IMG/VR virus record: IMGVR_UViG_3300019093_001331
Span: 1-20,041 of that record
DNA from: a virus
Strand: one strand, 5' to 3'
DNA: 20,041 nucleotides
In this document: piece after piece, positions 323 through 16,700 of the stretch
Position numbering within the stretch: position 1 is the stretch's first letter
Layout of the letters: each line of letters starts with the position of its first letter
Made by a program: the position numbers and the translations under genes
The notes under the pieces: model-generated
Told to the model about the DNA's origin: nothing
The model's input: only the letters and a program-made list of their open reading frames with translations
The model's database searches: none

Positions 323-1101
323 ACACACAGAAAATTGGAGTAGGTATCACCACATATAATACTGAGCATTATTATGATGCATTGTACAATTCTCTACCAC
401 GTGATACAATTGATGAACTTGTGACAGTTAATGGTGGGAAAGAATATTCTAAAAAATATGATTCTGATTGGATACAGCATCACAAAAATAGGTATCCAAG
501 TGTATGCAGAAATGATTGTATTAATTTTCTTTTGGAAAAAAAATGTGATCATATTTTTATAATTGAAGATGACATGATCATCAAAGACAAGAATATATTC
601 TACAAATATATTGAGGCATCCAAAGCAAGCAACTTGAAGTACTTTTCATTTGTGAGTACATCCTGGGAATCTGGTGCACCAGAAAAACGAACACCAAAAC
701 TAACTGTAGAATATAGCAAAGATACAAGCATTTCATTTTATCCAAACATGTGCAACGAGTTCACATATCATCATGCTTCGTGCTACAGCAAGACTGGCTT
801 ATATGACACTGGATATAGGTTTGCATGGGATGTTGACCTCACATATAGAGAGTCTGTGCGTGGAGATTATGCAGCGCCGTTCTGGTGGTTTGCAGATTTA
901 ACAAATTCAGATAATTACATTATGAATAACCCAGAGACGAGCAGCCGCATTGATGCCCCAGATAATCCTGATGGCTCTCGTACTCTAAAAATTCATAAAG
1001 AGTGGGAATATTTTGTTAAAAAACACGGTGTCATGGTGAATCAAATACCCATCAAAACAAAGCAAGAGGTTGTTAGCTTTTTGAAGCAAATTAAACCATG
1101 A
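319..1101 (+). CDS. GT-A fold (GT2-like) glycosyltransferase
   Basis: Predicted soluble 260-residue transferase. The N-terminus has the GT2-style opening (IGVGITTYN, residues 6-14). A SVCRNDCINF segment at 61-70 resembles the GT2 'ARNxG' helix. Residues 79-88 (IFIIEDDMII) place an acidic EDD at 83-85 after a hydrophobic strand, where the metal/nucleotide-sugar DxD normally sits. The C-terminal region (about 150-260) has HH and WDVD motifs and matches the truncated upstream gene. No membrane segment or signal peptide is evident, so it should act in the cytoplasm. Donor and acceptor cannot be read from sequence. ATGA overlaps at both ends place it in the long glycosyltransferase operon. Confidence 0.72.
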   Translation: MNTQKIGVGITTYNTEHYYDALYNSLPRDTIDELVTVNGGKEYSKKYDSDWIQHHKNRYPSVCRNDCINFLLEKKCDHIFIIEDDMIIKDKNIFYKYIEASKASNLKYFSFVSTSWESGAPEKRTPKLTVEYSKDTSISFYPNMCNEFTYHHASCYSKTGLYDTGYRFAWDVDLTYRESVRGDYAAPFWWFADLTNSDNYIMNNPETSSRIDAPDNPDGSRTLKIHKEWEYFVKKHGVMVNQIPIKTKQEVVSFLKQIKP

Positions 1102-1961
1102 AAATTGCAATTGGTATAAATGCTTTCAAGCCTTACGATAGATTGAATCATCGTGAAATGCTGTGCATTGAGAGCTTGCAAAAATTAAAGCAAAAATTTA
1201 AAAACGTTGAACTGTATATAATAACGTTTCAAGAAGATCAATTAGTTTATGATGGATTCATTACCATCAACAAATTAAAAAAGAAGTCAAATGCAGTTGT
1301 AAAGGAGTATTTTAAACAAGCCCATCTATCACAAGAGTATAGTTTGAGAGAAAATGATATCAACAACAACAAGAGAGAATTACCAATTGTAAATGAAATA
1401 TTTGATGTCATGTCAGATATTGATAGTGACTATTTCTTATTCACAAACAGTGACATAATAATTTCTGATAGGTTCATCAAGCACATTACTGCAGAGTATG
1501 AGTGTTATCCCTCAAGCAAAGCCTGCATTAGCAATATTAAATCACTTGACGATACACCTGTTGCAGATGCATACTCAGTGCACGGGTTTGATGCTTTTGC
1601 AATTAAAAACAGCACATGGAAGCGTGTAACAAAATCTCTTAAACAGTTCATACTTGGTCACAATTATTGGGATACATATTTCTTCACCATGCTCAATTGC
1701 TTGTGTAAATGCAAGAATCTAAACAAATTACCTTTTGTTTCCTTTCATATAAATCATGATGGTTGTTCCAGTGACAAAGCATTTGTTGAAAATTATTATA
1801 CTGAAGATGTATTTAGACGCGACCCTATTGTCAATCGTATTTGGTGGAATTATGTGTTCAATGTTCTGGAGAAGCGACCCACAGTAAACAATTGCAGGTG
1901 GTACCAACCTTTTGAAAATGAAGTTGAATTAGAGCAACACTACTTTAAACTAACACAATGA
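1098..1961 (+). CDS. Putative glycosyltransferase, GT-A type
   Basis: 287 residues. The start MKIAIGINAF is a strand followed by a polar loop, as in GT-A nucleotide-sugar-binding domains. Residues 111-122 (DYFLFTNSDIII) give a hydrophobic strand ending in N-S-D at 117-119, the expected place of a DxD-like motif. The segment about 155-180 (VHGFDAFAIKNSTW) and the later HNYWDTYF and FHINHDG segments resemble the acceptor-side region of viral and bacterial GT-A enzymes. I do not recognise a named subfamily. The protein is Lys/Asn-rich like its neighbours and has no membrane helix. ATGA overlaps with both flanking genes. Glycosyltransferase identity rests on the motif and the context; substrate is unknown. 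Confidence 0.58.
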   Translation: MKIAIGINAFKPYDRLNHREMLCIESLQKLKQKFKNVELYIITFQEDQLVYDGFITINKLKKKSNAVVKEYFKQAHLSQEYSLRENDINNNKRELPIVNEIFDVMSDIDSDYFLFTNSDIIISDRFIKHITAEYECYPSSKACISNIKSLDDTPVADAYSVHGFDAFAIKNSTWKRVTKSLKQFILGHNYWDTYFFTMLNCLCKCKNLNKLPFVSFHINHDGCSSDKAFVENYYTEDVFRRDPIVNRIWWNYVFNVLEKRPTVNNCRWYQPFENEVELEQHYFKLTQ

Positions 1962-2761
1962 ATTGTACTATTGCACTATCTCTGGGGTTTAACTACAACT
2001 ACTTGAAACCATTTCTCAAGAGCTTTAATGACAATGTGGATGGTGTTTTATTCCTTGTAACTGATCTGGATTGCTCGAGCCTGCCAATTGATCAAAAGAA
2101 GATACAAATAATAAATTACTATAAATTTGCCGAAAAACATAATATTAGAAGCCTCACACCGTACAATTTAAAACCCATTGTATTTTATCTTCTCTTGAAA
2201 GAGATCAAAGCACAAACGAATTGTCAGACAGCTTTGATGACAGATGTGGATGTCATTTTTCAAAAAGACCCCTTTGTTGAATATGCAAAAAAATTCCCTG
2301 CAAACAGCACTGTGCTTGCAGAAGAACGAAACTATTTTAGAGACTGTGACACCAACACAACTTGGTACAAGTTCGGGTACAGTGAGAGTTACGATGGGGT
2401 AAAGGACAAGAAGATTTTGAATTGTGGCGTTACCATTGGTAATATTGACAAGCTAATTGATTATCAAAAGCAAGTTGCAACAGAGCTGAGCATCATTCTA
2501 CCACAAAGAAATTATTTTGCATACGATCAAGTTATTTTAAATCTCTTAACATATGTGAGGAAGAGTCTGCAGCTAGAGATTCTCCCGCATGGAGATGAAT
2601 TCTTAATACACCTGTCTGCAGCTGATGAGAAAAATGATTTGAGTGAAAAATGGATATGCAACAATCTGCTTACCAAGCCAGGTCAACAACCTTTTGCCAT
2701 TGTGCATCAATATGACAAAAAAGATCTGACCAAGGCATTTTTTACTAAAAAATATGAGTAA
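1958..2761 (+). CDS. Putative glycosyltransferase with DVD motif
   Basis: 267 residues. Residues 92-106 (ALMTDVDVIFQKDPF) contain a textbook D-x-D (DVD, 96-98) after a hydrophobic strand. The following 'VIFQKDPF' is typical of eukaryotic/viral 'nucleotide-diphospho-sugar transferase' and GT8/GT77-like proteins, where it reads D-x-D-V-x-x-x-x-x-P. A conserved-looking LNCGVTIGNID segment at about 154-165 fits the 'N-x-G-v' loop of those families. The stop overlaps the next start by 8 bases. No signal peptide or membrane helix. Probably a Mn-dependent retaining or inverting transferase acting in the infected cell; donor and acceptor unknown. Confidence 0.66.
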   Translation: MNCTIALSLGFNYNYLKPFLKSFNDNVDGVLFLVTDLDCSSLPIDQKKIQIINYYKFAEKHNIRSLTPYNLKPIVFYLLLKEIKAQTNCQTALMTDVDVIFQKDPFVEYAKKFPANSTVLAEERNYFRDCDTNTTWYKFGYSESYDGVKDKKILNCGVTIGNIDKLIDYQKQVATELSIILPQRNYFAYDQVILNLLTYVRKSLQLEILPHGDEFLIHLSAADEKNDLSEKWICNNLLTKPGQQPFAIVHQYDKKDLTKAFFTKKYE

Positions 2762-3670
2762 TTTGGTTTCGTTCTTTCTAGACAGAACATTTCTACCCAC
2801 CAGTATTCCTAGTAGTGAGGAAAATATCTACGCACCTGCCTCTCTGCCTGATTACTACAAACAGACACTTGCTTTTAATAAAAAACATGCAGATAATGCA
2901 TATATTATTTTACAAGAAAAATACAAGCACGAAAATTCTGTGGATGTGGAACCACTGCTTCAGACAGAGGAGTATAAAGAAATTATTCATATATTTAAAA
3001 CAAAATGGCCCAGGTATATGACTGATGCATTCTGGTTCAACACAACAATTCGTGTATTCCTATTTCTCATTTTTATCATCAAAAGAGACCTCAAAGATAC
3101 TCTGCATCTGGAAGGTGACAATCTTATATTTGATGATATTTCAAACATAAGCAAATTTTTTAAACCAGGTGAGTTTGGATTTTGCAATGAAGCGCCGTCC
3201 GCTTCTGCACCATGCTGTATCTTTGTAAAAGATAGTGCAGCAGCACAGACACTTCTGGACCTTCATGTGAAGCTCATCAAGAAAGGTGAGGAAGCTCTAC
3301 GCAGTCATGTTGGGCATTTTTATAGCTGGATTACAGACATGGCCTTGCTCGACTTAATCTACAAATACGGAAAAATTATAAAATGCTACCATGTGTGCCA
3401 TCAGGACCGTTTTCTGAAAATTTTAACGAAATGCAGATGCTTTTTGATCCTAATCCCTATGGCATGTTTCTCGGTGGTACTAATCAAAACCATCCACCAG
3501 GCTATGTGGAATACCGTCACTATGTTGGCAAGGAGCTCATCGAGAAAAGCATCTCAGTAGGATTTGATAAGAAACCCTATGTGATTTATAAGGATAAGAA
3601 GATTCCTATCTTCAACCTACACATGCATAATAAGAAATGCATTGAAGAGTTTATTAAGAAAAGTGAATAA
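2754..3670 (+). pseudogene. Glycosyltransferase interrupted by a frameshift near 3380-3384
   Basis: Two overlapping frames encode one protein. Frame one (from 2754) carries a GT-like core: FWFNTTIRVF at about 93-102 and HLEGDNLIF at 118-126, resembling the 'HxExDxLxY' acceptor/donor strand of a viral/bacterial transferase family. It runs sensibly to KYGKIIK, then turns into unrelated Cys-rich sequence and stops at 3560. The other frame, entered at 3383, continues with LPCVPSGPFSENF, FDPNPYGMFLGGTN and a C-terminal KPYVIYKDKKIPIFNLHMH, ending at 3670. A single missing A in the A-run at 3380-3383 would restore one ORF of about 305 codons. A -1 ribosomal slip on A-AAA would do the same, but no canonical slippery heptamer is present. 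This is either a true lesion, a sequencing error or recoding. Confidence 0.65.
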
Positions 3671-4463
3671 TACAGATTTTATAATTACACCAGATAAGTT
3701 GTTGAGCCTTGCAAGCAACTACATATCTAGATATGGTAAGAAAATTACATACAACCCTGACGAAAATATTATTTTTCTTCATGGTGATAACATTTCTCTA
3801 TTTGCAAGAGAAAATTTACCCAACATTAATTACCCGTTTGTCTTGATTACGCATGATGCAGATGCACCAGTCACAACAGAACATCTATCGATTCTCAACA
3901 ACCCGCATCTCGTCAAATGGTTTGGCATGAATTGCCATGTTATGCACAATAAATTACAAACCATACCCATAGGTATGGCAAATGAAGTTTGGCCTCACGG
4001 TAACAAAGAAACAATATTAAAAATAATTAATGAGAACAATAGTAAAAAGAATCTTGTTTACTGTAACTTTGATCCCAACACAAATCCCAATGAGAGGTCT
4101 CATGCAATACAGAAGATCAAACATTACGATTTTATCGATTTCGATTTTCATAAGCATAGCTTTGAAGACTATTTGCGCAAACTAAGCACATACAAGTATG
4201 TTATTTCACCACCAGGAAACAGTGTTGACTGTCATAGAATCTGGGAGTCAATGTATGTAGGAACAGTGCCCATTGTTTTAAAAGATATACCAGTGGTTTA
4301 TTTTAAAGATTGCCCAATTCTTTTTATTAACTCATGGGAAGATTTAACACCGGAGCTGCTCATGACCAAGTATGCTGAGGTGAGTAAAAAAGAAACATAC
4401 AAATCAGACTTCAATTATTATAAAAAATTAATTCTCGATGCCGCAAGTACTTGCAAAAGCTAA
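3663..4463 (+). CDS. Exostosin-like glycosyltransferase
   Basis: About 266 residues from a GTG at 3663 (GTGAATAA overlaps the preceding stop). A TTG at 3642 would add seven residues but overlaps more. The diagnostic block is VISPPGNSVDCHRIWESMY followed by VGTVPIVLKD, matching the 'P-P-G-n-G-x-D-(C/t)-H-R-x-W-E-x-l-x-x-G-x-x-P-(I/V)' signature of exostosin-like (GT47-type) domains. Upstream segments PFVLITHDAD and TIPIGMANEVW fit the same family (strand plus 'iPiG'). The enzyme would transfer a sugar from a nucleotide donor; the GT-B nucleotide-binding half is at the C-terminal side. No membrane anchor, unlike eukaryotic exostosins. Acceptor unknown. Confidence 0.8.
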   Translation: MNNTDFIITPDKLLSLASNYISRYGKKITYNPDENIIFLHGDNISLFARENLPNINYPFVLITHDADAPVTTEHLSILNNPHLVKWFGMNCHVMHNKLQTIPIGMANEVWPHGNKETILKIINENNSKKNLVYCNFDPNTNPNERSHAIQKIKHYDFIDFDFHKHSFEDYLRKLSTYKYVISPPGNSVDCHRIWESMYVGTVPIVLKDIPVVYFKDCPILFINSWEDLTPELLMTKYAEVSKKETYKSDFNYYKKLILDAASTCKS

Positions 4464-4481
4464 TTAATAGTATATATTAGA

Positions 4482-5303
4482 ATGATGAAGAAATATTTCT
4501 TAAATTTTGCTATATGGCACGGTGAACGCGAAAACTTATTCAGAAAGTATATTGAGCCGCGCAATAGAAAATATTGTGAGATGCACGGGTTAAAGTATAT
4601 TGAGATCAATCAAACCAATTTTACTCCACAAATCTACTTCCCAGAGCTTCACCCAGGTGATAATTTTCATTTCAACAGGTGGTATCTTTTCAAAGATTTA
4701 GTTGACTCAGGCAAGCTTGTGGATGGTGATGTTATATATCAATATGATGCAGACGTTTTTATTGCTCAGCTCGATAAGTTTTATGAGCCCAAGAAAAGTT
4801 TCACCTATGCAATTGATTCAGGCAACACACATTGCTTTGGATTCTTTATTCTCAAAATCTCGCCATTCACCCGCAAGCTAATCAATCTGATTACTTCAAG
4901 AGAGAAATTCTATGAAAACAAAGATTTTAAAATTTGGAACGAACATTTTAATGAAAAGAGAACCTTTTATCATGGTGATCAGCAGGCATACTATGTGCAT
5001 GCTGGCATAAAACCTCATAGCTGGACGCCTTTCTATGATCTACCTAACAACGGTCTGCATTCTGAAGTAACTGAAAAAACTGTTCTGTCGCTGGACGAAT
5101 TGCTTGAGAATGTTGATATACTGCCAACAGAATGGAACGTTACACATCTATTGGACGAGACAGGCGATAAAACGTTCACACCAACAAAGCCCAACACATA
5201 TGATATTGTGCATGCCGATCCAAATAATATAATCTACAGACATTTTGCAGGTGGCCAGCCTTGGTTATTCGAGGAATACAATAGGCGCTACCCCATCAAA
5301 TAA
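4482..5303 (+). CDS. Putative glycosyltransferase with DAD motif
   Basis: 273 residues. Residues 80-94 (VDGDVIYQYDADVFI) hold a D-A-D (89-91) after a beta strand, preceded by FNRWYLFKDLVDSG, the 'K-x-x-x-(l/i)-x-x-l-l' helix found before the DxD in GT34/GMA12-like and related galactosyl/mannosyltransferases. Residues about 160-170 (FYHGDQQAYY) fit the 'n-D-Q-x-a-l/y' acceptor motif of those enzymes. The C-terminal HADPNNIIYRHFAGG has conserved His residues consistent with metal coordination. The gene follows an 18-base gap and has no obvious Shine-Dalgarno; a second in-frame ATG follows immediately. No transmembrane anchor. Likely a metal-dependent cytoplasmic transferase; sugar specificity not assignable. 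Confidence 0.68.
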   Translation: MMKKYFLNFAIWHGERENLFRKYIEPRNRKYCEMHGLKYIEINQTNFTPQIYFPELHPGDNFHFNRWYLFKDLVDSGKLVDGDVIYQYDADVFIAQLDKFYEPKKSFTYAIDSGNTHCFGFFILKISPFTRKLINLITSREKFYENKDFKIWNEHFNEKRTFYHGDQQAYYVHAGIKPHSWTPFYDLPNNGLHSEVTEKTVLSLDELLENVDILPTEWNVTHLLDETGDKTFTPTKPNTYDIVHADPNNIIYRHFAGGQPWLFEEYNRRYPIK

Positions 5304-5308
5304 ATTAT

Positions 5309-5971
5309 ATGGAAATGAAAGTAGCTGTTTGTTTATCAGGTCAAATACGTAGCTTTAATTATGTACGCCAAAGCTTAAAAGACCATCTAATCGATCCTTA
5401 CAATTGTGATGTGTTTTGCCATTGCTGGCATAAGCATGACGATAGTGCTTATAAGAATGATTTCAACGACCATGACACAACACCCTATGGCAAGTATACA
5501 GATTATGATATAACTGACGTAGTTAATTTTCTAAAGCCAATCTCTTTCTGTTTTGATTACCCCACCTTTTCTGAAAATACAAAGAGCATGCTCAGGTCTA
5601 TTACAAGAAGTAATGATCTTAAGAAAGAATACGAGCGGGTTAATAATTTTAAGTATGATGTTGTAGTAAGAGTAAGATGGGATTTGCTTTATAGCGAAAA
5701 AATAAATCTACACAACTGTGCAGAGAAGCAGGTATATCTTATGGACCGCCCAGGTGGCTGCGGTGGTATAAATGATTGGTTTGCATACGGTAATTCGAAT
5801 ACTATGGACACATATGCAAAAGTTTACAACGATAATGAAGGCACCGAGCGTATAAAACAACCATGTCCAGAGGGTATACTAGGTGCACATTTAAATGCAA
5901 ACAATATTAATGTTAATATAATTCATAAGACATTTTATATTGTACGTGCAGACGGCATAATCGGTTGTTGA
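5309..5971 (+). CDS. Putative glycosyltransferase of a capsule-type family
   Basis: 220 residues. The opening KVAVCLSGQIRSFNYVRQSL, followed by DVFCHCW, matches a recurring bacterial/viral pattern ('k-i-a-v-c-x-S-G-q-x-R ... D-v-F-x-H-x-W') seen in capsular polysaccharide and glycan islands. The middle has YDVVVRVRWDLLY (about 129-141), where the R-x-R/W-D stretch is the usual conserved core of that family. NDWFAYGNSNTMDTY follows as the next conserved block. ATG codons at 5309 and 5315 are both possible starts; the second (MKVAVCLSG) fits the family start better. The precise reaction of the family is not something I can name, so this is called a putative transferase from pattern and context. 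Confidence 0.55.
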   Translation: MEMKVAVCLSGQIRSFNYVRQSLKDHLIDPYNCDVFCHCWHKHDDSAYKNDFNDHDTTPYGKYTDYDITDVVNFLKPISFCFDYPTFSENTKSMLRSITRSNDLKKEYERVNNFKYDVVVRVRWDLLYSEKINLHNCAEKQVYLMDRPGGCGGINDWFAYGNSNTMDTYAKVYNDNEGTERIKQPCPEGILGAHLNANNINVNIIHKTFYIVRADGIIGC

Positions 5972-5975: not shown

Positions 5976-6704
5976 ATGAATATGGTTATACCCATGGCTG
6001 GGGTGGGCTCTCGATTTAGCAAAACTCACTCGGGTGAGCTCAAGCCCCTGATTGATGTGAAAGGCAAGCCGATGGTAACTCGCATCATTGATAACCTATC
6101 ACAAGATAAACAAACTAAATTTTTTTTAATTATCTCATCACAACTCAGTACAGATAAAAGCTTCAAAGACATTCTTGATTCACTAGACATTAATTATGAG
6201 CTCATAGTTGCTGAGGCTCTTACTGAAGGACCCGCGTGCACATGCTTACTAGCTGAAAAATATATCAACAACAGTCAACAGCTTATTATAGTAAATTGTG
6301 ACCAGATTATTGTTGATTTTAATATTAAAAATTTACTTAATTTTGCTAAATTTAATCAAGCAGATGGCATTGTTGGTGCCTTTCATTCTAATTCCAATAA
6401 AAATAGCTACATAAAGCTTAGTGAAGATTTAAGAATTCAGGAAATAAAAGAAAAAATTGTAATCAGTAATATTGCAACAAATGGTCTGCACTTTTGGTCC
6501 AAGGGTTCTGATTTTGTTTATTCAGCAAACGAAATGATAAAAAAAGATGAAAGATATGGTAATGAATTTTATGTTGCACCTTCATACAATTACATGATAA
6601 GAGATGGTAAGAAAATTATACCTTATTACTATAATCTCCATTACCCCATTGGTGTGCCAGACGATTTAAATTATTTTACAGAACAAATATATGAAAATCT
6701 ATAA
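5976..6704 (+). CDS. Sugar-phosphate / alcohol-phosphate nucleotidyltransferase
   Basis: 242 residues with the pyrophosphorylase fold hallmarks. The N-terminal P-loop-like signature is MAGVGSRF (7-14) with downstream K23-P24. TEGPACTCLLAEKYI lies at about 83-97. The metal-binding aspartate is in IVNCDQI (D109), and EVKEK-like IKEKIVIS at 157-164 provides the catalytic Lys region. The overall pattern, notably 'LTEGxACT' and 'NxDQI', resembles capsule-cluster nucleotidyltransferases such as Campylobacter Cj1416 rather than RmlA or GalU. It would couple CTP or another NTP to a phosphorylated small molecule, releasing PPi. The gene overlaps the cupin start by 14 bases, tying it to the cupin-RLP-GDPD block. 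Nucleotide and substrate are not determinable here. Confidence 0.75.
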   Translation: MNMVIPMAGVGSRFSKTHSGELKPLIDVKGKPMVTRIIDNLSQDKQTKFFLIISSQLSTDKSFKDILDSLDINYELIVAEALTEGPACTCLLAEKYINNSQQLIIVNCDQIIVDFNIKNLLNFAKFNQADGIVGAFHSNSNKNSYIKLSEDLRIQEIKEKIVISNIATNGLHFWSKGSDFVYSANEMIKKDERYGNEFYVAPSYNYMIRDGKKIIPYYYNLHYPIGVPDDLNYFTEQIYENL

Positions 6705-7017
6705 CATTAATACTTTTAAAGGTGGGTGGTTTATCGGTGATTTTAGCCCTTCTGTTCTCAAGACAAAAGAATTTGAAGTCTGCTATAAGCAGCATCAGAA
6801 AGGTGAATGCTGGCCAAAGCACTTGCATAAAGTTGCGACGGAGATTAACTATCTAATCAAAGGTAAAATGATGATACAAGAAAAAATTTTACAACAAGGA
6901 GATGTTTTTGTTATTGAACCAAATGAAATAGCAGATCCCACTTTTTTTGAAGATTGCGAACTTATAGTTGTAAAAACACCTTCTGTGACAGGAGATAAAT
7001 ATGAAAATTTTCCGTAA
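6691..7017 (+). CDS. Small single-domain cupin
   Basis: 108 residues forming one cupin barrel. Motif 1 is KHLHKVATEINYLIKGKM, giving H44, H46 and E51 of the usual HxH(x)nE metal set and the G of 'vlxG'. Motif 2 is QQGDVFVIEPNEIADPTF (69-85), which keeps G, P and N but has no His at the usual fourth-ligand position. The metal site may therefore be three-residue or altered. Cupins in sugar clusters act as sugar (keto)isomerases, epimerases or binding proteins; which applies here cannot be told. The gene overlaps the nucleotidyltransferase by 14 bases and the RLP by 17, and its 3' end contains the RLP ribosome binding site. Confidence 0.78.
   Translation: MKIYNINTFKGGWFIGDFSPSVLKTKEFEVCYKQHQKGECWPKHLHKVATEINYLIKGKMMIQEKILQQGDVFVIEPNEIADPTFFEDCELIVVKTPSVTGDKYENFP
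6990..6995 (+). promoter_or_regulatory. Strong Shine-Dalgarno for the RuBisCO-like gene
   Basis: AGGAGA lies five bases before the ATG at 7001, inside the last codons of the cupin gene. It is one of the few near-consensus ribosome binding sites in the glycan cassette, where most genes rely on stop-start overlaps. This fixes the RLP start and suggests it is translated efficiently relative to its neighbours. Confidence 0.7.
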
Positions 7018-8197
7018 CAAGGAAGAGGTAGACATCAACAAATATGTTGTTGCCACATATAGAATGTCAAGCAACCAATCTCTCAAAGCAGCAGCTTGGA
7101 ACCTAGCCATAGGTCAAAGTGTTGGTAATCCTAATGTAAGAAATGAATGGGAGACAGACAGCTTGTTTGAAAATCACAGCTGTATTATATTTGCGGATGA
7201 AAAGAAATTAGAGGAACAAAAGGCTGGTATGGTAGAGATAGGATTTCCTGTTATCAATAGTGACTGGGATAACGATGGTATTAGCCATTTATTGTGCCAG
7301 CTCATGGGAGGTCATGTAGATATCGATCTGATCACTAGCTGCAGATTAATTGATTTGCTAATACCAGAATGTGTTAAGCAGCATTTCTTGGGCCCAAAAT
7401 TTGGCATCACAGGATTGAGGAAATTAACCAATCAATTTAACAAACCGCTTTTTGGTGCTATTATTAAACCCAAAACTGGTATCACTTCAAAAGTTTTGCT
7501 TGAAATGGTTAAACAAGTTGTTGAGGGTGGTGTTGATTTTATTAAAGAAGATGAAATAATGAGTAACCCTGCATGTTGCCGGTTGGAGGAAAGGGTAGAA
7601 GTTATAGCTAACTATCTTTCAACACAAAAGAAAAAAATAGCTTTTTGCCACACAATTAATGGAGATCCACATGTTGTTTTAGATAGGGTACGCAAAGTAA
7701 GCGAACTGGGCGGCAACGGAGTACACATAAATGTATGGAGCGGTCTGGGGGTTTATAATAGCATTCGTAAGTTAGATTTACCAGTATTCTTACATTTTCA
7801 AAAAAGCGGCGACAGAGTATTTACAGATAGAAGTCATAGATTCTCTATTGCTTGGCCTGTTGTTTGTCAGTTAGCAACTCTCATGGGTGCTGATACAATA
7901 CAAGCAGGTATGGTTGGTGGTTATAGCAATGATGATGAAATTGAATTGATGCAAGCATTAAAAATTTTAAGAGAAGGCAATACTGTGCCAGCTCTTAGTT
8001 GCGGAATGCATCCCGGTCTAGTTGATTTCTGTATTGGCAGGGTGGGTAATGATTTTATGGCAAATGTAGGTGGTGCAGTGCACGGCCATCCAGGTGGCTC
8101 CCGATCTGGTGCCTTGGCTATGCGGCAAGCTATTGATAAGGAACATGGCAAGGAATATAACCAAGCCATTGAAAAGTGGGGCATAGTTTCTGCATAA
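7001..8197 (+). CDS. RuBisCO-like protein (form IV type, non-carboxylating)
   Basis: 398 residues, full-length for a RuBisCO large-chain fold: N-terminal domain about 1-125, then the TIM barrel. Conserved: GPKFGITGLRK (131-141), KPK with K156/K158 (spinach K175/K177), and VDFIKEDE with K182, D184, E185 (the carbamylated Lys201, Asp203, Glu204). Also kept are SCGMHPG with S333/G335 (S379/G381) and VGGAVHGHPGG (356-366, phosphate-binding G403/G404 and GHP). Altered: loop-6 'GTVVGK' is GMVGGY, so Lys334 is Tyr308; the Arg295 and His327 positions are non-basic (HFQK, TIQ); the Asn123 region reads MGGHVD; Glu60 is lost. Form IV members with this pattern catalyse enolisation/isomerisation or decarboxylation of mono-phosphorylated keto-sugars, not CO2 fixation. 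Placement between a cupin and a GDPD-like gene points to glycan-precursor chemistry. Confidence 0.9.
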   Translation: MKIFRNKEEVDINKYVVATYRMSSNQSLKAAAWNLAIGQSVGNPNVRNEWETDSLFENHSCIIFADEKKLEEQKAGMVEIGFPVINSDWDNDGISHLLCQLMGGHVDIDLITSCRLIDLLIPECVKQHFLGPKFGITGLRKLTNQFNKPLFGAIIKPKTGITSKVLLEMVKQVVEGGVDFIKEDEIMSNPACCRLEERVEVIANYLSTQKKKIAFCHTINGDPHVVLDRVRKVSELGGNGVHINVWSGLGVYNSIRKLDLPVFLHFQKSGDRVFTDRSHRFSIAWPVVCQLATLMGADTIQAGMVGGYSNDDEIELMQALKILREGNTVPALSCGMHPGLVDFCIGRVGNDFMANVGGAVHGHPGGSRSGALAMRQAIDKEHGKEYNQAIEKWGIVSA

Positions 8198-8200: not shown

Positions 8201-8617
8201 ATGAAGCTAATTTCACACAGAGGCAATACAAGCGGCTCGAACTTAACATTGGAAAATACCCCGGAACAAATAAAAAAAGTATTGAACATGGGTTATGATT
8301 GCGAGGTTGATGTCCATGCAACTCATGGGGGTTTGTTTCTTGGTCACGATGCGCCTGATCATGCTGTTGATGGCTCCTTTTTTGAGCTTAAGAGCATTTG
8401 GTGGCATGCAAAAAATTTAGATGCATTAATATTTCTTTTAAATAAAAATGTTGCTTGCTTCTGGCATGAATCTGATGAACGGACATTAACTTCCAATGGT
8501 TATATTTGGACATATCCAGGCAAAGCAGTGAATGAAAAAAGCATTATTGTGCACTTGCAAAATGATTGGAAACAGTTAAACTATAATTGTTACGGCATAT
8601 GCACTGATTTTATATGA
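8201..8617 (+). CDS. Short glycerophosphodiester phosphodiesterase-like protein
   Basis: 138 residues. It begins at once with the GDPD signature: ISHRG (H6, R7), then LENTPE (E18, N19, T20), then CEVDVHATHGG with metal ligands E35 and D37, then LGHD (H49, D50). All catalytic and Mg/Ca-binding positions of the N-terminal half of a GDPD barrel are intact. The protein is about half the usual ~240 residues, so the C-terminal barrel strands are abbreviated; WHAKNLD and ICTDFI near the end may be degenerate late strands. GDPDs hydrolyse glycerol-phosphodiesters, and short versions occur in polysaccharide clusters. Here it starts three bases after the RLP stop and ends with an ATGA overlap, so it is probably a co-translated partner of the RLP module. 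Confidence 0.75.
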   Translation: MKLISHRGNTSGSNLTLENTPEQIKKVLNMGYDCEVDVHATHGGLFLGHDAPDHAVDGSFFELKSIWWHAKNLDALIFLLNKNVACFWHESDERTLTSNGYIWTYPGKAVNEKSIIVHLQNDWKQLNYNCYGICTDFI

Positions 8618-9345
8618 AAATTGACGAATTTACAATTAGCTTGCACTGTGGTTGCAGTAGAGATATAACAAATAAACAAATAGAGGCATTAAAGCCGTTA
8701 GAGGCAAAATACAAAGTACACTGGAACAATAGAATCGATAGGTATCCTAAAATGTACCCCTCATACTCTCAGCTCATAAACCACGCTATTGTTACTTCAC
8801 CAACGGAATGGGTAATATTAATTAACGATCGCACTTATCCGAAACCAGAAGAAGTGGAAAAAATGCTGCATTTACTTGAGAATGGCATGTCGTGTGTGCT
8901 GCTTTATAATGTTGGGTTCATGGGGTTTGCAAAAGAATTAATCAGAAAAATAGGCTGGTGGGACGAGAGGTTCATTCATGGTGGTTGGGAAGATCGTGAT
9001 TGGGTGTGGAGATTGTATGAAGCAGATTTAGCCCTTTATGAGAGCCAGGAGAGCACTTATGATACCACCTGGAAATCGCCTCTCAATGTGCCTGGTGGTC
9101 ATAGCTCCACACCACATTGGCTGCAAAAATACAATGGTTATGACCACTTTGTTATTGTAAAAACTTTAGCTGAAGAAAAATACCCACACTGGGATCTATT
9201 CAATGGTGACCCCAGATCTGATATTAGTACTACATGGAAGAAGTGGAGTGATTCAATCCTCAATATAGATTATGATAAACCTGAATCCGGGCCATCCGGA
9301 TCATCACTAATAGCCAATAGAAAATTAATTACTAGTTACGTCTGA
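8614..9345 (+). CDS. GT-A fold glycosyltransferase (GT2/galactosyltransferase-like C-terminus)
   Basis: 243 residues. The early part (FTISLHCGCS) is the first strand of a GT-A domain. EWVILINDRTYPKPEEVEKML (65-85) has N-D-R at 71-73 in the place of the DxD. Residues 103-134 read MGFAKELIRKIGWWDERF then IHGGWEDRDWVWR. This is the classical 'f-x-k-e-x-l-x-x-i-G-x-f-D-E-x-f ... g-x-E-D-x-D-x-x-x-R' acceptor/catalytic-base block of GT2 and beta-4-galactosyltransferase-type enzymes. The stop is followed by a 42-base gap, one of the longest in the cassette. Being directly downstream of the RLP module it is a candidate user of that module's product; this is inference only. Confidence 0.75.
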   Translation: MKIDEFTISLHCGCSRDITNKQIEALKPLEAKYKVHWNNRIDRYPKMYPSYSQLINHAIVTSPTEWVILINDRTYPKPEEVEKMLHLLENGMSCVLLYNVGFMGFAKELIRKIGWWDERFIHGGWEDRDWVWRLYEADLALYESQESTYDTTWKSPLNVPGGHSSTPHWLQKYNGYDHFVIVKTLAEEKYPHWDLFNGDPRSDISTTWKKWSDSILNIDYDKPESGPSGSSLIANRKLITSYV

Positions 9346-9387: not shown

Positions 9388-10365
9388 ATGAAAAGGATTC
9401 TTATCACTGGTGGTCTAGGATTCGTAGGTGTACACTGCATTGAGAAGTGGAAAGCGCTTGGCTGGAGCATTACCATCATTGATAACATGTCATCGAATGC
9501 CATACCTGCAGATCACTCCATTACCAAAGATACACAGGTTATTGTGGACAACATTTTGCATGTCAAGTGGGCGGATCTGCCCAAGTTTGATTTAATACTG
9601 CACCTCGCATCACCAGTGGGCCCGGTTGGTGTCCTCAAGCATTCTGGTAATATGGCGAGATTGATTTTAGATGATATATACTGGGCAATCAACGGAGCAA
9701 ATCACAACAAATGTCCCCTGCTGTTCATATCCACATCTGAAATCTATGGATATAGAGCCAGTAAAAGTTATCTGAAAGAAGAAGACGATAAAGTTTTACA
9801 TGGACCTTTTACTGTAAGAAATGAATATGCAATTTCAAAATTACTATCAGAAATAGTTCTGGCTAATCATGGTAAAATTAATTCCAATTTTAAATATCAG
9901 ATCATCAGACCATTTAATATTACAGGTGAGTATCAACTGCCTGATGGTGGCTTTGTTTTGCCAAGATTTGTAGACCAAGCACTAAACAATGAGGACATCA
10001 CAGTTTATTATAATGGATTGCAGCTCAGAGCTTTCACCTGGGTAAAAGATATAGTTGATGGCATATATTTAACTTCAACTGCACCTGATGAATACTGGAA
10101 CCATGAATGGAATATCGGTTACGAGCAAAACGAAAGAACTGTGCTGTATCTTGCAGAGAAAGTAAAAGAGCTTACACATACAATGTCAAATATTAGTCAT
10201 GTTGATCCAGTGTCATTACATGGTCCTCTTTTCTCTGAAGCTCCTGAAAAAATTCCTAATAGTGAAAAAATTAAACAACATCTTGGTTGGAAGCCTACAA
10301 AAAATGTTGATGAAGTAATTGAAGAAGTTGTAAATTTCTACAAAAATAAAAAATGTACAAAATAG
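9388..10365 (+). CDS. NAD-dependent epimerase/dehydratase (UDP-glucuronate decarboxylase-like SDR)
   Basis: 325 residues from ATG 9388 (MKRILITGG); a GTG at 9373 would add five unlikely residues. Extended SDR. Dinucleotide loop TGGLGFVG at 7-14. LHLASPVGPVG at about 71-81 matches 'HLASPxSP' of UDP-xylose synthases. Catalytic STSEIYG at 115-121 has the Thr-Ser-Glu seen in ArnA and UXS decarboxylases rather than the Thr-Asp-Glu of 4,6-dehydratases. YxxxK is Y147-K151 (NEYAISK). RPFNITGEY then closes the substrate pocket. It probably acts on a UDP-uronic acid, giving a pentose nucleotide, but an epimerase or apiose-type synthase remains possible. The adjacent dehydrogenase-like gene could supply the uronate. 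Overlaps the next gene by 13 bases. Confidence 0.78.
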   Translation: MKRILITGGLGFVGVHCIEKWKALGWSITIIDNMSSNAIPADHSITKDTQVIVDNILHVKWADLPKFDLILHLASPVGPVGVLKHSGNMARLILDDIYWAINGANHNKCPLLFISTSEIYGYRASKSYLKEEDDKVLHGPFTVRNEYAISKLLSEIVLANHGKINSNFKYQIIRPFNITGEYQLPDGGFVLPRFVDQALNNEDITVYYNGLQLRAFTWVKDIVDGIYLTSTAPDEYWNHEWNIGYEQNERTVLYLAEKVKELTHTMSNISHVDPVSLHGPLFSEAPEKIPNSEKIKQHLGWKPTKNVDEVIEEVVNFYKNKKCTK

Positions 10366-11078
10366 GCATCATTGGGTATGGTGAAATTGGTAGTAGCCTT
10401 GCCAAGGTGTACAGAGAGCACAAGGACTTTGCATCTTCAGTATACATTGTAGACCCCAAGTTTAATTGCAACGATGACATAAAAAACTGTGATGTACTAA
10501 ACGTCTGCATACCATTTACAGAGAATTTTGTTACTACAGTCAACAATTACATCTCAGAAAACGCACCAAAACTCACTGTCATACACTCCACAGTTGTACC
10601 AGGCACAACAAGCAAGATCATTGGCAACACCTGTCATTCACCTGTTCGCGGCTTGCATCCTAATCTGGATACAGGCATAAAGCTCTTCTTAAAATACATT
10701 GGTGCAGATGACCGCTCTGTAGCAAAAAAATATCAAGAGCACTTGAACTGTCTGAATATTAAATCGTTGATTTGCAAAAATAGCAAGACCACAGAATATG
10801 CAAAACTACTGGACACTACATATTATGGCATTTGCATTGCGTTTCATAACGATGTGCTCAAGTTATGTGAAACAGAAGGGTTAAATTTTGAAGAAGTCAT
10901 GACAACATATAATCTCACTTATAATGAAGGTTATTTAGCATTGGGCAAAAAGAATGTGACAAGACCTGTGCTGTATGGTTCCAAGAAAATCGGTGGTCAT
11001 TGCGTTGTGCCCAACGCAAAAATTCTAAAAAACCTTCTTGATATTGAATCGATACATTCTATATTAAGATATGAGTAA
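10353..11078 (+). CDS. Short UDP-glucose/GDP-mannose dehydrogenase-like protein
   Basis: 241 residues. The Rossmann start is IGIIGYGEIGSSLAKVY (GYGEIG 8-13). STVVPGT lies at 80-86 and NLNVCIPF-type strands match UGDH. TTEYAKLLDTTYYGICIAFHND (147-167) is the central dimerisation helix with the Lys of family 'E-x-x-K' (K151). KIGGHCVVPNAKIL (212-225) aligns with the 'GGxCxPkD' motif, so the catalytic Cys is C217. Normal family members are about 390-450 residues; this protein stops just after the Cys and lacks the C-terminal UDP-binding Rossmann domain. It may be a minimal enzyme, one needing a partner, or act on a different substrate. ATG overlaps the preceding gene by 13 bases and the epimerase by 8. 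Confidence 0.72.
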   Translation: MYKIGIIGYGEIGSSLAKVYREHKDFASSVYIVDPKFNCNDDIKNCDVLNVCIPFTENFVTTVNNYISENAPKLTVIHSTVVPGTTSKIIGNTCHSPVRGLHPNLDTGIKLFLKYIGADDRSVAKKYQEHLNCLNIKSLICKNSKTTEYAKLLDTTYYGICIAFHNDVLKLCETEGLNFEEVMTTYNLTYNEGYLALGKKNVTRPVLYGSKKIGGHCVVPNAKILKNLLDIESIHSILRYE

Positions 11079-12078
11079 TATCAAGAAAGCATTAGTGCTT
11101 GGTGCAGGTGGATTCATTGGCAACCACCTTGTAACGAGATTGAAGAGTGAGGGGTATTTTGTTCGAGGCATAGATTTAAAACACCCAGAGTATTCTGATA
11201 CTGGTGCGGATGAATTTTTTATAATGGATCTCACAGATCCTAGCGCCGTAAAAAGAGCAATGAATGCCAGTTGGCATTATAGCACAGCTAGTGTTGTCAC
11301 GCCATTTGACGAGGTGTATCAATTGGCTGCTGACATGGGTGGTGCAGGCTACATCTTCACAAAAGAACATGATGCAGATGTGATGCAAAATTCTGCAACT
11401 ATCAATTTAAATGTGTGCAAGACAGCTGCAGCATATAATTATGCAGGCAAAAAGATTTTTTATAGCAGCAGTGCTTGCATGTATCCAGAACACAATCAAT
11501 TGGACCCCAACAATCCCAACTGCAGTGAAGACAGCGCATACCCTGCAAACCCAGACAGTGAGTATGGCTGGGAAAAACTTTTTAGTGAGAGGTTATACTT
11601 GGCTTACAGCCGCAATTACAATTTGAGCGTGCGCATTGCTCGCTTTCACAACATCTTTGGCACCCAAGGTACATGGCAGGGTGGTAGAGAGAAGGCACCA
11701 GCTGCAATTTGTCGCAAAGTGTTGCAATCCACAGGCGACATTGAAATCTGGGGTGATGGTGAGCAGACTAGATCCTTCTTGTATATTGATGAGTGCATTG
11801 AAGGCATTCGCAGATTGATGCAATCAGACTTTGCAGAACCAGTGAACATTGGTTCTGTGGAACGAGTAACCATCAATCAATTGGTTGACTTGGCATGTTC
11901 ATTTGAAAATAAAAAAATTATAAAAAACTACAAGCTGGATGGGCCTACCGGTGTAAGAGGCAGAAATTCTTGCAACAAGTTGATACACAAGCAATTGAAT
12001 TGGCAGCCATGTAGCCCATTGGTTGCAGGGTTAGAGAAAACTTATTTCTGGATTAAATCCCAAATAGAAAATAGTTGA
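11071..12078 (+). CDS. GDP-mannose 3,5-epimerase
   Basis: 335 residues, close to the plant enzyme in length outside its N-terminal extension. NAD loop LGAGGFIGNHL (10-20); LAADMGGAGYI (85-95); SSACMYPE with catalytic C136; YGWEK with Y165 and K169. RFHNIFGTQGTWQGGREKAPAA (191-212) contains K208, the second acid/base of the C3/C5 epimerisation. GDGEQTRSFLYIDECIEG lies at 228-245 and GVRGRNS with a substrate-binding Arg near 296. This motif series is specific to GME, which converts GDP-D-mannose to GDP-L-galactose (and GDP-L-gulose) and is best known from plant ascorbate and cell-wall synthesis. In a phage glycan cassette it most likely supplies an L-hexose donor for the neighbouring transferases. 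Last gene before a 30-base AT-only gap. Confidence 0.92.
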   Translation: MSNIKKALVLGAGGFIGNHLVTRLKSEGYFVRGIDLKHPEYSDTGADEFFIMDLTDPSAVKRAMNASWHYSTASVVTPFDEVYQLAADMGGAGYIFTKEHDADVMQNSATINLNVCKTAAAYNYAGKKIFYSSSACMYPEHNQLDPNNPNCSEDSAYPANPDSEYGWEKLFSERLYLAYSRNYNLSVRIARFHNIFGTQGTWQGGREKAPAAICRKVLQSTGDIEIWGDGEQTRSFLYIDECIEGIRRLMQSDFAEPVNIGSVERVTINQLVDLACSFENKKIIKNYKLDGPTGVRGRNSCNKLIHKQLNWQPCSPLVAGLEKTYFWIKSQIENS

Positions 12079-14174: not shown

Positions 14175-15803
14175 GTGCAGAAAAAATTAGTTTCTTATTT
14201 TCCTCAAAACTATACTCCGAGCAGCAGTCAGATACAGTTGATTGATGGTGTTGAGAAAGCTTTTGCCAAAGGAAAGAAGTTTGTGATCTGCTGTGCGCCC
14301 ACAGGCACAGGTAAAAGCTTTCTTGGCAAGACATTGGCTAATCTGAGCACACCACCCACTGCAGCATATACCAGTCTTATCAACAGTTATGATGCATTCA
14401 GACAAGATTACAGTGGCAATTATACACATGAAGCAGACGCAAGGAAGGAACCTGCCTTTGGCACCTTCACTCTGACCATAACAAAATCTCTGCAAGACCA
14501 ATACATTCAGTTGTTTGAGGATGGCAAACTATTGAAGGGCAAAACAAATTATCAATGCCATGTGGATGAAAATTTTGATGTGGAGTCTGCACCATGTGTA
14601 TTAGTAAGCAAGCTCAAGGAGGATTGCTGGACAAAAAATATATGTCCTTATTATGCTGCAAGAAACACTGCTCTGCTGGACAGGTTCTCCATTTTAAATT
14701 ACAAAATGTTTTTATCTCTGCCAGATCATGTGAAACGAAAAAATTTTATTGTGTGTGATGAAGCGTCAGAATTAGAGGATGAATTGGTGAGACGGTTCTC
14801 TGCTCTCATTGATTATGACAGATTGAGGAGCTACGATATCAGTGTGCTGCCTCTGGTCACAGAGAGCATGCAGAAAACTCGTGTCTGGCTGTACGAGCTC
14901 ATCTTTCGTCTCAGCGAAACAATTGGCCTGCTACAAAGCAGGAACACCAAAAAAATAACCAATCTATCTCCATTGGACAAAATTAAAATTCGCTATCTCA
15001 AGAACCTACACAGCAATCTTGCAATTATTGAATCGCTGTGGGATGAGTGTGAGTTTGTTGTGGACAAGGATTCACGCCGTGCCTTGTTCACACCACTCAA
15101 AGTGGACAAATTATCAAAATATATCTTTGATTATGGTGACAACATCTTGTTAATGTCTGCTACCATCATTGATCATAAAAACTTTGCAAAAACGCTGGGC
15201 ATCAAAGATTATGAATATGTGGAGGTTGACTCCACTTTTGAATCGTCAAAATCACCCATATATGTCACATCTAAGAACAAGTTAAACTATAAAACCATTA
15301 AAACAGAATTGCCAGAAATTGTTAACAAGATTAAGCAAATTTGTGATTTTCATAAAGATGAAAAGGGTATCATACACACCCATACCATGGAGATAACAGA
15401 ATATATTAAAGCAAATTTGAGTGGTGATAGATTTCTCTTCAGGGAGCTATCGTCAAAAAATGAAGATATTCTCAAGGAGCATTCCTTGAGCAGTGCACCT
15501 ACTGTGCTGGTGTCACCATCATTGTCCTTTGGTATTGATCTCAAGGATGAATTGGCTAGATTTCAAATCATAGTCAAACTGCCATACTTGCCATTATCTT
15601 CCAAAAGAATCAAGAAGTTGTTTGAATTGGACAAAACCTGGTACATTGATAAAATGTTGAACGCCATGGTGCAAGCAACTGGAAGAGCTACAAGAAGCAA
15701 AAATGATTACTCTGTTACGTACATCCTGGACGGTAACATAGTGGATGTCATAAAGACACACAAAGACAGATTACCAAAATACTTTATTGATAGGGTTATC
15801 TAG
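14175..15803 (+). CDS. XPD/DinG-type SF2 DNA helicase with probable Fe-S domain
   Basis: 542 residues from GTG 14175. Helicase motifs in order: Walker A APTGTGKS (41-48), Ia TLTITKSLQDQY (99-110), II DEAS (195-198), III MSAT (327-330), V SPSLSFGIDL (447-456), VI QATGRATRS (500-508). Between Ia and II lie C128, C141, C151 and C157 (YQCH, APC, EDCW, ICPYY). This is the location and number of the 4Fe-4S ligands in the XPD/DinG/Rad3 family, which are 5'-3' DNA helicases. The protein is shorter than DinG (about 715) but has the complete motor. T4 uses other helicases (gp41, Dda, UvsW), so this could serve repair, recombination or R-loop clearance. Its stop is 16 bases before the late fibre gene. 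Confidence 0.82.
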   Translation: MQKKLVSYFPQNYTPSSSQIQLIDGVEKAFAKGKKFVICCAPTGTGKSFLGKTLANLSTPPTAAYTSLINSYDAFRQDYSGNYTHEADARKEPAFGTFTLTITKSLQDQYIQLFEDGKLLKGKTNYQCHVDENFDVESAPCVLVSKLKEDCWTKNICPYYAARNTALLDRFSILNYKMFLSLPDHVKRKNFIVCDEASELEDELVRRFSALIDYDRLRSYDISVLPLVTESMQKTRVWLYELIFRLSETIGLLQSRNTKKITNLSPLDKIKIRYLKNLHSNLAIIESLWDECEFVVDKDSRRALFTPLKVDKLSKYIFDYGDNILLMSATIIDHKNFAKTLGIKDYEYVEVDSTFESSKSPIYVTSKNKLNYKTIKTELPEIVNKIKQICDFHKDEKGIIHTHTMEITEYIKANLSGDRFLFRELSSKNEDILKEHSLSSAPTVLVSPSLSFGIDLKDELARFQIIVKLPYLPLSSKRIKKLFELDKTWYIDKMLNAMVQATGRATRSKNDYSVTYILDGNIVDVIKTHKDRLPKYFIDRVI

Positions 15804-15806
15804 GTA

Positions 15807-15814
15807 GATAAATA
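15807..15814 (+). promoter_or_regulatory. T4-type late promoter box before the fibre-like gene
   Basis: GATAAATA matches the T4-like late -10 consensus NATAAATA. The box ends five bases before the ATG at 15820 and directly follows the helicase stop. No Shine-Dalgarno sequence lies in the usual window. T4 late starts lie about six bases after the box, so the transcript would begin at the initiation codon. Confidence 0.55.
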
Positions 15815-15819
15815 ACTAC

Positions 15820-16662: not shown

Positions 16663-16687
16663 GCTCATAAAAATAGCATTTCCAAGA

Positions 16688-16695
16688 TATAAATA
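16688..16695 (+). promoter_or_regulatory. T4-type late promoter box before the prohead protease gene
   Basis: TATAAATA, a perfect match to the T4 late consensus, in the 38-base gap after the fibre-like gene. It ends five bases before the ATG at 16701. No Shine-Dalgarno is present upstream of that ATG. Confidence 0.65.
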
Positions 16696-16700
16696 TTATT

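What the first reader, a model, noticed from the sequence alone, without database searches (positions are those of the whole stretch)
7001..8197. Phage-encoded RuBisCO-like protein with intact metal triad but no loop-6 lysine
Seen: a full-length RuBisCO large-chain fold gene embedded in a T4-like phage genome. KPK (K156/K158) and K182/D184/E185 are kept; the Lys334 position is Tyr308, and the Arg295 and His327 positions are non-basic (Gln). Known: Lys334 is needed for carboxylation, and Arg295/His327 hold the second phosphate. Form IV proteins that keep the triad are enolases, isomerases or decarboxylases on mono-phosphorylated substrates. Inference: it acts on a keto-sugar phosphate or keto-acid sugar in glycan-precursor synthesis. 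It may belong to the marine-metagenome 'IV-GOS' form IV clade, whose function I know of no report for; this would make phages a natural home for such sequences.
Basis: partly seen in the sequence, partly recalled or inferred. Interest (0 to 1): 0.9.

Follow-up and report, generated by a model that had tools for sequence, protein, structure and literature searches.

The report
Phage RuBisCO-like enzyme for surface sugars
Many uncultured phages carry a relative of the carbon-fixing enzyme RuBisCO that has lost parts needed to fix carbon dioxide, keeps the parts needed to rearrange sugar phosphates, and travels with genes for making activated sugars.

Summary
The gene at 7001-8197 is a full-length RuBisCO-fold protein in a T4-like phage. 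Lys156, Lys158, Lys182, Asp184 and Glu185 are intact; Tyr308 replaces the loop-6 lysine. One detail of the finding is wrong: the Arg295 position is Lys268; Gln267 is the His294 position.

The protein belongs to a separate branch of the RuBisCO superfamily (support 100/100), apart from forms I-III, MtnW, OiaX and the other references sampled. The branch keeps the enolisation residues but has replaced Glu60, Asn123, His294 and Lys334. An IMG/VR scan reported 332 viral relatives (best 80 seen); a search of 50,697 GenBank phage records gave none. In cells it is rare and patchy.

It travels with a sugar-phosphate nucleotidyltransferase (76 of 79 viral loci; 18 of 23 cellular loci; 0 of 26 other RuBisCO-family loci), often with a small cupin and a miniature GDPD-like protein. 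Selection is purifying (median dN/dS 0.05).

Best reading: a metal-dependent sugar-phosphate enolase/isomerase feeding nucleotide-sugar synthesis for surface glycans. No activity is shown and the substrate is unknown. The IV-GOS idea could not be tested. Viral 'rbcL' genes of this branch should not be counted as carbon-fixation genes.

The parts
7001..8197 (+). RuBisCO-like protein, 398 aa, of a clade shared by viruses and some cells
   Evidence: Pfam PF00016 1.5e-32; model pLDDT 92.1; tree 100/100
7466..7474 (+). codons of K156-P157-K158 (spinach K175 and K177)
   Evidence: both Lys in 82 of 82 rows
7544..7555 (+). codons of K182-E183-D184-E185 (positions of K201, D203, E204)
7799..7804 (+). 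codons of Q267 (His294 position) and K268 (Arg295 position)
7922..7924 (+). codon of Y308 at the loop-6 Lys334 position
   Evidence: Y in 82 of 82 viral rows and in 20 of 20 cellular clade rows
5976..6704 (+). sugar-phosphate nucleotidyltransferase (phrog_3980 family), core partner
   Evidence: Pfam NTP_transferase 1.2e-10; phrog_3980 8.3e-51; family profile's best solved relative 4evw, 6.2e-35
6691..7017 (+). small cupin, overlapping the genes on both sides
   Evidence: Cupin_7 1.9e-5, below its gathering cut-off; phrog_24762 5.7e-39; 53 of 79 viral loci
8201..8617 (+). miniature GDPD-like protein, 138 aa
   Evidence: no Pfam hit; phrog_34507 9e-20; conserved H6, R7, E18, E35, D37, H49, K71; model pLDDT 95.6; GDPD fold Z 10.3 although Foldseek's best E was only 6.9e-3
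2..5971 (+). eight ORFs upstream, mostly unassigned; hits in three: GT25-like (below cut-off), RXYLT1_C/GT47-like, DUF7796
   Evidence: the first ORF (2-322) was not scanned
8614..9345 (+). possible glycosyltransferase
   Evidence: phrog_2456 4.1e-4 only; no Pfam hit
9388..12078 (+). two SDR nucleotide-sugar epimerase/dehydratase genes around a nucleotide-sugar-dehydrogenase-like gene (start taken as 9388; the mechanical ORF begins at 9373)
   Evidence: Pfam Epimerase 5.6e-29 and 3e-38, UDPG_MGDP_dh 1.8e-6
14175..20013 (+). phage helicase, prohead protease, scaffold-like protein, major head protein (gp23-like)

Best explanation
A RuBisCO-superfamily enzyme that has kept the first half of RuBisCO chemistry (metal-assisted removal of a proton next to a ketone to give an enediolate, using a probably carbamylated Lys182, Mg2+ on Asp184/Glu185, and Lys156/Lys158 as acid/base) and lost the second half (adding CO2 or O2). 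It most likely returns a proton to a different carbon, so that it isomerises or epimerises a keto-sugar phosphate held by its phosphate at the glycine-rich P1 site. The adjacent nucleotidyltransferase then activates the product as a nucleotide-sugar for phage- or host-surface glycans. The cupin and mini-GDPD are accessory steps whose place in the order is unknown. Shown: sequence, predicted fold, clade, gene linkage, purifying selection. Inferred: enolisation, hand-over to the nucleotidyltransferase, glycan use. Not known: the substrate; ketopentose phosphates are my first guess, by analogy with the R. rubrum RLP isomerisation (recalled; cited in the reference list of PMC6302742, seen).
For: All 82 viral rows keep K175, K177, K201, D203, E204, S379, G381 and G403, and so do all 20 cellular clade rows; G404 is kept in 80 of 82 and 18 of 20. 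E60, N123, H294 and K334 are replaced in 40 of 40 clade rows and kept in 21 of 21 form I-III rows, whose labels were checked by NCBIfam. Nucleotidyltransferase in 76 of 79 viral loci, all on the RLP's strand, 59 of them one or two ORFs upstream; within 3 ORFs in 18 of 23 cellular clade loci, among them isolate Legionella and a nanoarchaeal MAG. In size-matched loci with about 1.4 kb on each side it is in 8 of 8 clade and 0 of 26 other RuBisCO-family loci; seven of those 8 repeat loci. Protein distances covary with the RLP's: Mantel r 0.41 nucleotidyltransferase, 0.60 cupin, 0.51 GDPD, none of 2000 permutations reaching each. RLP and cupin ORFs overlap in 34 of 43 loci where the cupin is directly upstream, by mechanical ORF starts. 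Median dN/dS 0.053 over 31 non-independent pairs. Highest structural Z is to the MtnW enolase 2oem with a diketo-phosphate ligand, Z 43.8, rmsd 2.1, 368 aligned.
Against: No activity, ligand or solved structure. Form III RuBisCO 2cwx has Z 43.4, a tie, so fold does not single out an enolase. Five of 23 cellular loci show no nucleotidyltransferase nearby (L093, L096, L097, L099, L104); L093 and L104 are short contigs and L097 ends just downstream. Sugar nucleotidyltransferases are common in glycan clusters, so part of the viral linkage could be background, and no other gene was used as a yardstick there. The Mantel values have no control gene and shared phage ancestry alone would raise them. 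The nucleotidyltransferase family has no known substrate, so 'activates the RLP product' is inference.
Confidence: 0.58

Rival explanations
1. Decarboxylase of a 3-oxo acid sugar phosphate, as OiaX is, making a short ketose phosphate for activation.
For: OiaX is a RuBisCO-fold decarboxylase by its NCBIfam name; the window protein scores 132.1 bits on that model; the N123 position is Gly in 4 of 4 rows of the OiaX group (one annotated as OiaX, three grouped with it), as in this clade; a nucleotide-sugar-dehydrogenase-like gene lies downstream.
Against: 132.1 bits against a cut-off of 700; separate clade; the OiaX-group rows keep K334, H294 and R295 and lack K177, the reverse of this clade. The one annotated OiaX locus and two of its relatives lie with a four-carbon acid sugar kinase; I did not search for that kinase beside the clade, and only 25 of 102 neighbour families were shown.
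Confidence: 0.15
2. The enediolate is trapped by an electrophile other than CO2, for example an aldehyde, so that the enzyme builds a longer or branched sugar for the nucleotidyltransferase.
For: K175, K177 and the metal triad are kept as in true RuBisCO; K177 is kept in none of the other RLP groups tallied. Loop 6 is rebuilt around an invariant Tyr rather than lost.
Against: No RuBisCO relative is known to me to do this; nothing here points to an electrophile.
Confidence: 0.12
3. Methionine-salvage enolase (MtnW-like).
For: Highest structural Z is to MtnW structures, though tied with form III RuBisCO.
Against: NCBIfam MtnW models 131.1 and 162.5 bits against cut-offs 513.6 and 409; the position that is Lys in both MtnW rows (N123) is Gly here; no methionine-salvage family among the window proteins scanned.
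Confidence: 0.04
4. A carbon-fixing viral RuBisCO (auxiliary metabolic gene).
For: RuBisCO fold; a viral rbcL has been reported as carboxylating (PMC12615777, passages read).
Against: Loop-6 Lys, E60, N123 and H294 are replaced in 40 of 40 clade rows and kept in 21 of 21 form I-III rows; the tree places it apart from forms I-III.
Confidence: 0.01
5. Non-catalytic protein that keeps the fold for another role.
For: No activity is known.
Against: Invariant catalytic residues and median dN/dS 0.053.
Confidence: 0.05

Closest known systems
DK-MTP-1-phosphate enolase MtnW/YkrW (PDB 2oem, 2zvi)
   Same: fold (Z 43.8 and 43.6), metal triad, K175 position, G381/G403/G404, Gly at the E60 position
   Different: no Lys at the N123 position; K177 kept; Lys or Ser at the Arg295 position and Tyr at Lys334; separate clade
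3-oxo-isoapionate-4-phosphate decarboxylase OiaX and its wider clade
   Same: metal triad, K175, G381/G403/G404; Gly at the N123 position as in the OiaX group
   Different: H294 and K334 replaced and R295 replaced or Arg in 1 of 40; keeps K177; sits among nucleotide-sugar and glycan genes, whereas the annotated OiaX locus has a sugar-acid kinase and dehydrogenases
Form III RuBisCO (PDB 2cwx, 3a12)
   Same: fold (2cwx Z 43.4), K175/K177/K201/D203/E204
   Different: E60, T65, N123, H294 and K334 replaced in 40 of 40 clade rows, R295 in 39 of 40; not nested with it
Form IV-GOS (Tabita 2007, recalled; named in PMC10173188, passages read)
   Same: ocean sampling sequences, a form IV subgroup by that paper
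   Different: cannot be compared: no labelled sequence at hand
Viral 'RbcL-like' proteins in landfill and IMG/VR viruses (PMC12607003, passages read)
   Same: may include this clade: viral, called rbcL by annotation, grouping with RbcL-like proteins, said to occur in IMG/VR viruses and not to be widely reported
   Different: that paper lists them as carbon-fixation AMGs in a table and, in the passages read, gives no cassette or residue analysis; its sequences were not compared

Membership tests
RuBisCO superfamily | Pfam PF00016 above its cut-off | tested here: met
   113.5 bits, cut-off 30.1
RuBisCO superfamily | whole two-domain RuBisCO fold | tested here: met
   predicted model pLDDT 92.1; Z 43.8, rmsd 2.1, 368 residues aligned
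Bona fide RuBisCO (forms I-III) | loop-6 Lys334, and E60, N123, H294 | tested here: not met
   Tyr, Gly, Gly, Gln in 40 of 40 clade rows; Lys, Glu, Asn, His in 21 of 21 form I-III rows (labels)
Bona fide RuBisCO (forms I-III) | NCBIfam form III cut-off | tested here: not met
   165.1 of 497.45 bits
Bona fide RuBisCO (forms I-III) | nesting in forms I-III in the tree | tested here: not met
   clade separated from 40 references with support 100/100; no AU test was run
Bona fide RuBisCO (forms I-III) | carboxylates RuBP | not testable with these tools
   needs an assay
MtnW (IV-YkrW) | NCBIfam equivalog cut-offs | tested here: not met
   162.5 of 409 and 131.1 of 513.6 bits
MtnW (IV-YkrW) | Lys at the N123 position (general base, recalled as K98) | tested here: not met
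   Gly in 40 of 40 clade rows; Lys in 2 of 2 MtnW-group rows
OiaX decarboxylase | NCBIfam equivalog cut-off | tested here: not met
   132.1 of 700 bits
OiaX decarboxylase | groups with OiaX in the tree | tested here: not met
Form IV-GOS | groups with the GOS sequences that define the clade | not testable with these tools
   no labelled GOS sequence at hand; metagenome scans capped at 0; review not held
Clade described here (defined from these sequences, so partly by construction) | motifs GQS[VI]GNP, GGxxDI, KPK, KEDE, Gln at H294, GY at loop 6 | tested here: met
Clade described here (defined from these sequences, so partly by construction) | linked nucleotidyltransferase | tested here: met
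   window 5976-6704; 76 of 79 viral loci

The most novel reading that the evidence does not exclude
The clade is the first RuBisCO-fold branch dedicated to building nucleotide-activated sugars, spread mainly by phages, and its Tyr loop closes over a non-CO2 electrophile or a re-protonation step to yield an undescribed keto-sugar or branched sugar on phage or host surfaces.
Probability: 0.3. Interest if true: 0.9.

Novelty: new variant of a known kind. Interest (0 to 1): 0.74.

Why it matters
It gives the RuBisCO superfamily a coherent branch found mostly in viral contigs, whose gene partners point to sugar activation rather than carbon fixation or methionine salvage. It makes a concrete test possible, since two to four small genes can be expressed together. 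It also bears on viral ecology: annotation calls such genes rbcL and lists them as carbon-fixation genes (PMC12607003, passages read), while this branch lacks residues that all 21 form I-III rows keep. Whether the sequences of that paper, or the assayed rbcL1 of PMC12615777 (passages read), belong to this branch was not checked; PMC12615777 says its rbcL genes group mainly with Proteobacteria homologues, so they may well be another form.

Tried and rejected
IV-GOS: one search, one set of passages and one failed look-up gave only its name; GOS sequences could not be fetched, so the idea stands untested. PMC1821046 (passages read) reports 65 GOS sequences that cluster with no known RuBisCO; a link to this clade is possible but not shown.

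GenBank phage records: tblastn of 50,697 found nothing, but the tool warns that records near the window may be left out. The viral structure library listed no RuBisCO among its 50 best rows; a family not listed is not excluded.

Other RLPs in viruses: single-protein scans with one MtnW and one OiaX confirmed no viral relative. Such scans reach close relatives only and do not show that viruses lack other forms.

Viral counts: scans reported 171 and 332 relatives (tblastn E up to 1e-3), but only the best 80 of each were returned; the rest were not seen and their clade is not verified. Neighbour counts use 79 loci (L002-L080): I dropped L001, which carries an identical RLP, and L081, the window itself. 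T4 markers were sought in 30 contigs of 45 kb or more chosen from the 80: head protein in 11 of 30, terminase in 13 of 30, either in 14; 16 showed neither. The terminase family also rings in 6 of 14 cellular control genomes, the head family in 0 of 14.

Cellular prevalence: 4 of 22 Legionella-genus genomes, one of them new. In two overlapping draws of one Pelagibacter family, 2 of 197 and 2 of 147, all of them seed genomes. At clade-level scores 2 of 194 nanoarchaeal and 1 of 247 Bacteroidota genomes, again the seeds (weaker matches there are other RuBisCO forms). 2 of 379 Patescibacteria, one the seed, the other only 211 bits. Several cellular contigs are short (L082, L084, L085, L087) and could be phage DNA in a MAG or single-cell genome. 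The Legionella loci, L083, L090, L094 and L095 lie on contigs of 42 kb or more.

Trees: the 100-row quick tree had long branches; for the careful tree I dropped 31 rows, long-branch or redundant, leaving 69. Of 24 loci, 19 entered the first tree as clade rows together with L181; L089, L090, L091 and L104 were left out, and L105 was used as a reference because it falls outside the clade. W66 could not be aligned reliably.

Controls: the 8 clade loci are L178-L181, L207, L237, L239 and L259; all but L181 repeat loci. Reference loci under 4 kb (the larger part) were not used.

LicD lies beside the Legionella pair in 3 of 3 loci with enough flank (Pfam for L101, BLAST for L102 and L103), but BLAST found it in no viral locus, so it is not core evidence. 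The cupin PDB search gave weak hits. The window's own head genes match few of the 80 viral loci (3 of 80), since the flanks held are 10 kb at most.

Papers. Judged from the listed titles and abstract starts, and from passages of seven papers, none describes this clade or its cassette; one search listed 8 of 174 hits. Subscription journals and preprints are mostly not held.

Full report
What is there. The window is a virus record of 20,041 bases with a T4-like head block at 14175-20013: helicase, prohead protease, a weak scaffold match and a gp23-like major head protein. Upstream is a long run of genes on one strand, partly glycosyltransferase-like and partly nucleotide-sugar genes, many unassigned. 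Within it, 7001-8197 encodes a 398-aa RuBisCO-fold protein. The genes are packed: nucleotidyltransferase 5976-6704, cupin 6691-7017, RLP 7001-8197, GDPD-like 8201-8617.

Residues. The Arg295 assignment is off by one: Gln267 is the His294 position and Lys268 the Arg295 position. Across 82 aligned rows (the window, its copy L081 and 80 IMG/VR loci) the triad, both KPK lysines, His265, Gln267, Tyr308, Ser333, Gly335 and Gly357 are invariant; the Arg295 column is Lys in 43 and Ser in 39, the His327 column Gln in 49 and His in 33. In the clade as a whole (20 viral and 20 cellular rows) E60, T65, N123, H294 and K334 are replaced in every row, while K175, K177, K201, D203, E204, S379, G381 and G403 are kept in every row. 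In 21 form I-III rows all of these are kept. K177 is kept in none of the other RLP groups tallied. By RuBisCO chemistry as I recall it, the kept set serves enolisation and one phosphate site; the replaced set serves CO2 addition and closure of loop 6.

Fold. AlphaFold2 on the 26-row alignment gives mean pLDDT 92.1. VIA-align gives Z 43.8 (rmsd 2.1, 368 aligned) to the MtnW enolase 2oem and 43.4 to form III RuBisCO 2cwx; these are tied, so fold alone does not choose a reaction. Model coordinates were not at hand, so the sites were not inspected in three dimensions.

Clade. A scan of 84,980 species genomes with the viral alignment gave 24 relatives: Pelagibacter and another alphaproteobacterium, three Legionella isolates, nanoarchaea, Patescibacteria, Bacteroidota, Verrucomicrobia, Elusimicrobia, Azospirillum, and a Desulfosporosinus that proved to lie outside. 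A 69-row tree with 40 references puts 15 viral and 14 cellular rows on one side of a branch with 100/100 support; a 100-row tree agrees. Reference labels: 9 of 9 form III rows and 4 of 4 form II rows pass their NCBIfam equivalog cut-offs, 8 of 8 form I rows pass the large-subunit subfamily cut-off and stay under that of form III. One MtnW row passes its cut-off and one OiaX row is annotated so; the rest of those groups, and a probable Photo group, are labelled by tree position or by guess. The viral rows with a few cellular ones form a crown group and the deeper branches are cellular, which suggests exchange between phages and cells, but the root is not inferred.

Distribution. Two scans reported 171 and 332 IMG/VR relatives; the best 80 were returned each time. 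Of 30 long contigs tested, 11 carry a T4-type head protein and 13 a terminase, 14 either. No GenBank phage record matched. In cells the gene is rare: most genome draws found only the seed genomes, with one new Legionella genome.

Gene partners. In 79 viral loci the nucleotidyltransferase is present in 76, the cupin in 53 and the GDPD-like gene in 62, with 76 of 76, 53 of 53 and 61 of 62 on the RLP's strand. In the 23 cellular clade loci, a nucleotidyltransferase of the same family lies within three ORFs in 18, in L086 on the opposite strand. In loci of about 4 kb and more from the genome searches and plasmid records it is in 8 of 8 clade loci and 0 of 26 other RuBisCO-family loci; seven of the 8 repeat loci. 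In six Pelagibacter loci the RLP is flanked by two such enzymes; in L090 this unit lies between a thyX-like gene and a ParA/Band_7 block. In Legionella the pair has no cupin or GDPD hit and stands beside a divergent LicD gene. The nucleotidyltransferase's best solved relative is 4evw, annotated only as a nucleoside-diphosphate-sugar pyrophosphorylase. A Pfam scan of 80 of 107 other neighbour groups showed, among the first 25 of 102 families, glycosyltransferases, methyltransferases, an aminotransferase, UDP-galactopyranose mutase and epimerases.

Selection. Among 142 viral pairs of 80-99.5% identity, 31 had dS under 1.5; the median dN/dS is 0.053, the highest 0.226. The pairs are not independent, but the values fit a protein kept as a working enzyme.

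Mechanism. The most economical reading is a sugar-phosphate enolase/isomerase feeding the nucleotidyltransferase. The linkage that survives in the most distant genomes is RLP with nucleotidyltransferase, so these two are taken as the core; cupin and GDPD are accessory. This remains inference until an assay is done. Decarboxylation and a C-C bond-forming reaction are the main rivals.

Known and new. Viral rbcL genes are in print: PMC12607003 notes viral RbcL-like proteins in landfills and in IMG/VR, distinct from a virally encoded RbcL reported earlier (passages read), and PMC12615777 reports a carboxylating viral rbcL1 (passages read). Nothing listed by the ten searches describes this clade, its signature or its cassette. 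I therefore call it a new variant of a known kind.

Noticed in passing
window 8201-8617: The 138-aa GDPD-like protein is predicted with pLDDT 95.6 and aligns over 131 residues with the whole barrel of GDPD 1vd6 (Z 10.3, rmsd 3.0), which suggests a naturally miniaturised TIM barrel with its catalytic residues kept; Foldseek alone gave no match under E 0.001.
   Followed up: partly
window 2754-3560 and 3383-3670: Two overlapping ORFs in different frames in the glycan cluster look like one gene interrupted by a frameshift.
   Followed up: no
window 15820-16662: The predicted protein begins with near-identical repeats of about 50 aa (GQALALHNL...), just before the head genes, and has no PHROG match.
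   Followed up: no
window 12109-12693: A DUF366 protein (2.6e-22) sits between the sugar genes and the phage core.
   Followed up: no
L088, L089, L090, L091, L092, L094: Six Pelagibacter loci carry two nucleotidyltransferase paralogues flanking the RLP plus the GDPD-like gene; in L090 this unit sits between a thyX-like gene and a ParA/Band_7 block.
   Followed up: partly
L101, L102, L103: The Legionella RLP and nucleotidyltransferase lie beside a divergent LicD-family gene, which could hint at a CDP-activated product.
   Followed up: partly
window 7802-7804 and 7901-7903: Residues 268/271/299/301 fall into linked subtypes (S-A-T-Q 37, K-D-F-H 16, K-D-T-H 15, K-D-T-Q 10 including the window, 4 others, of 82), perhaps different substrates.
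   Followed up: partly
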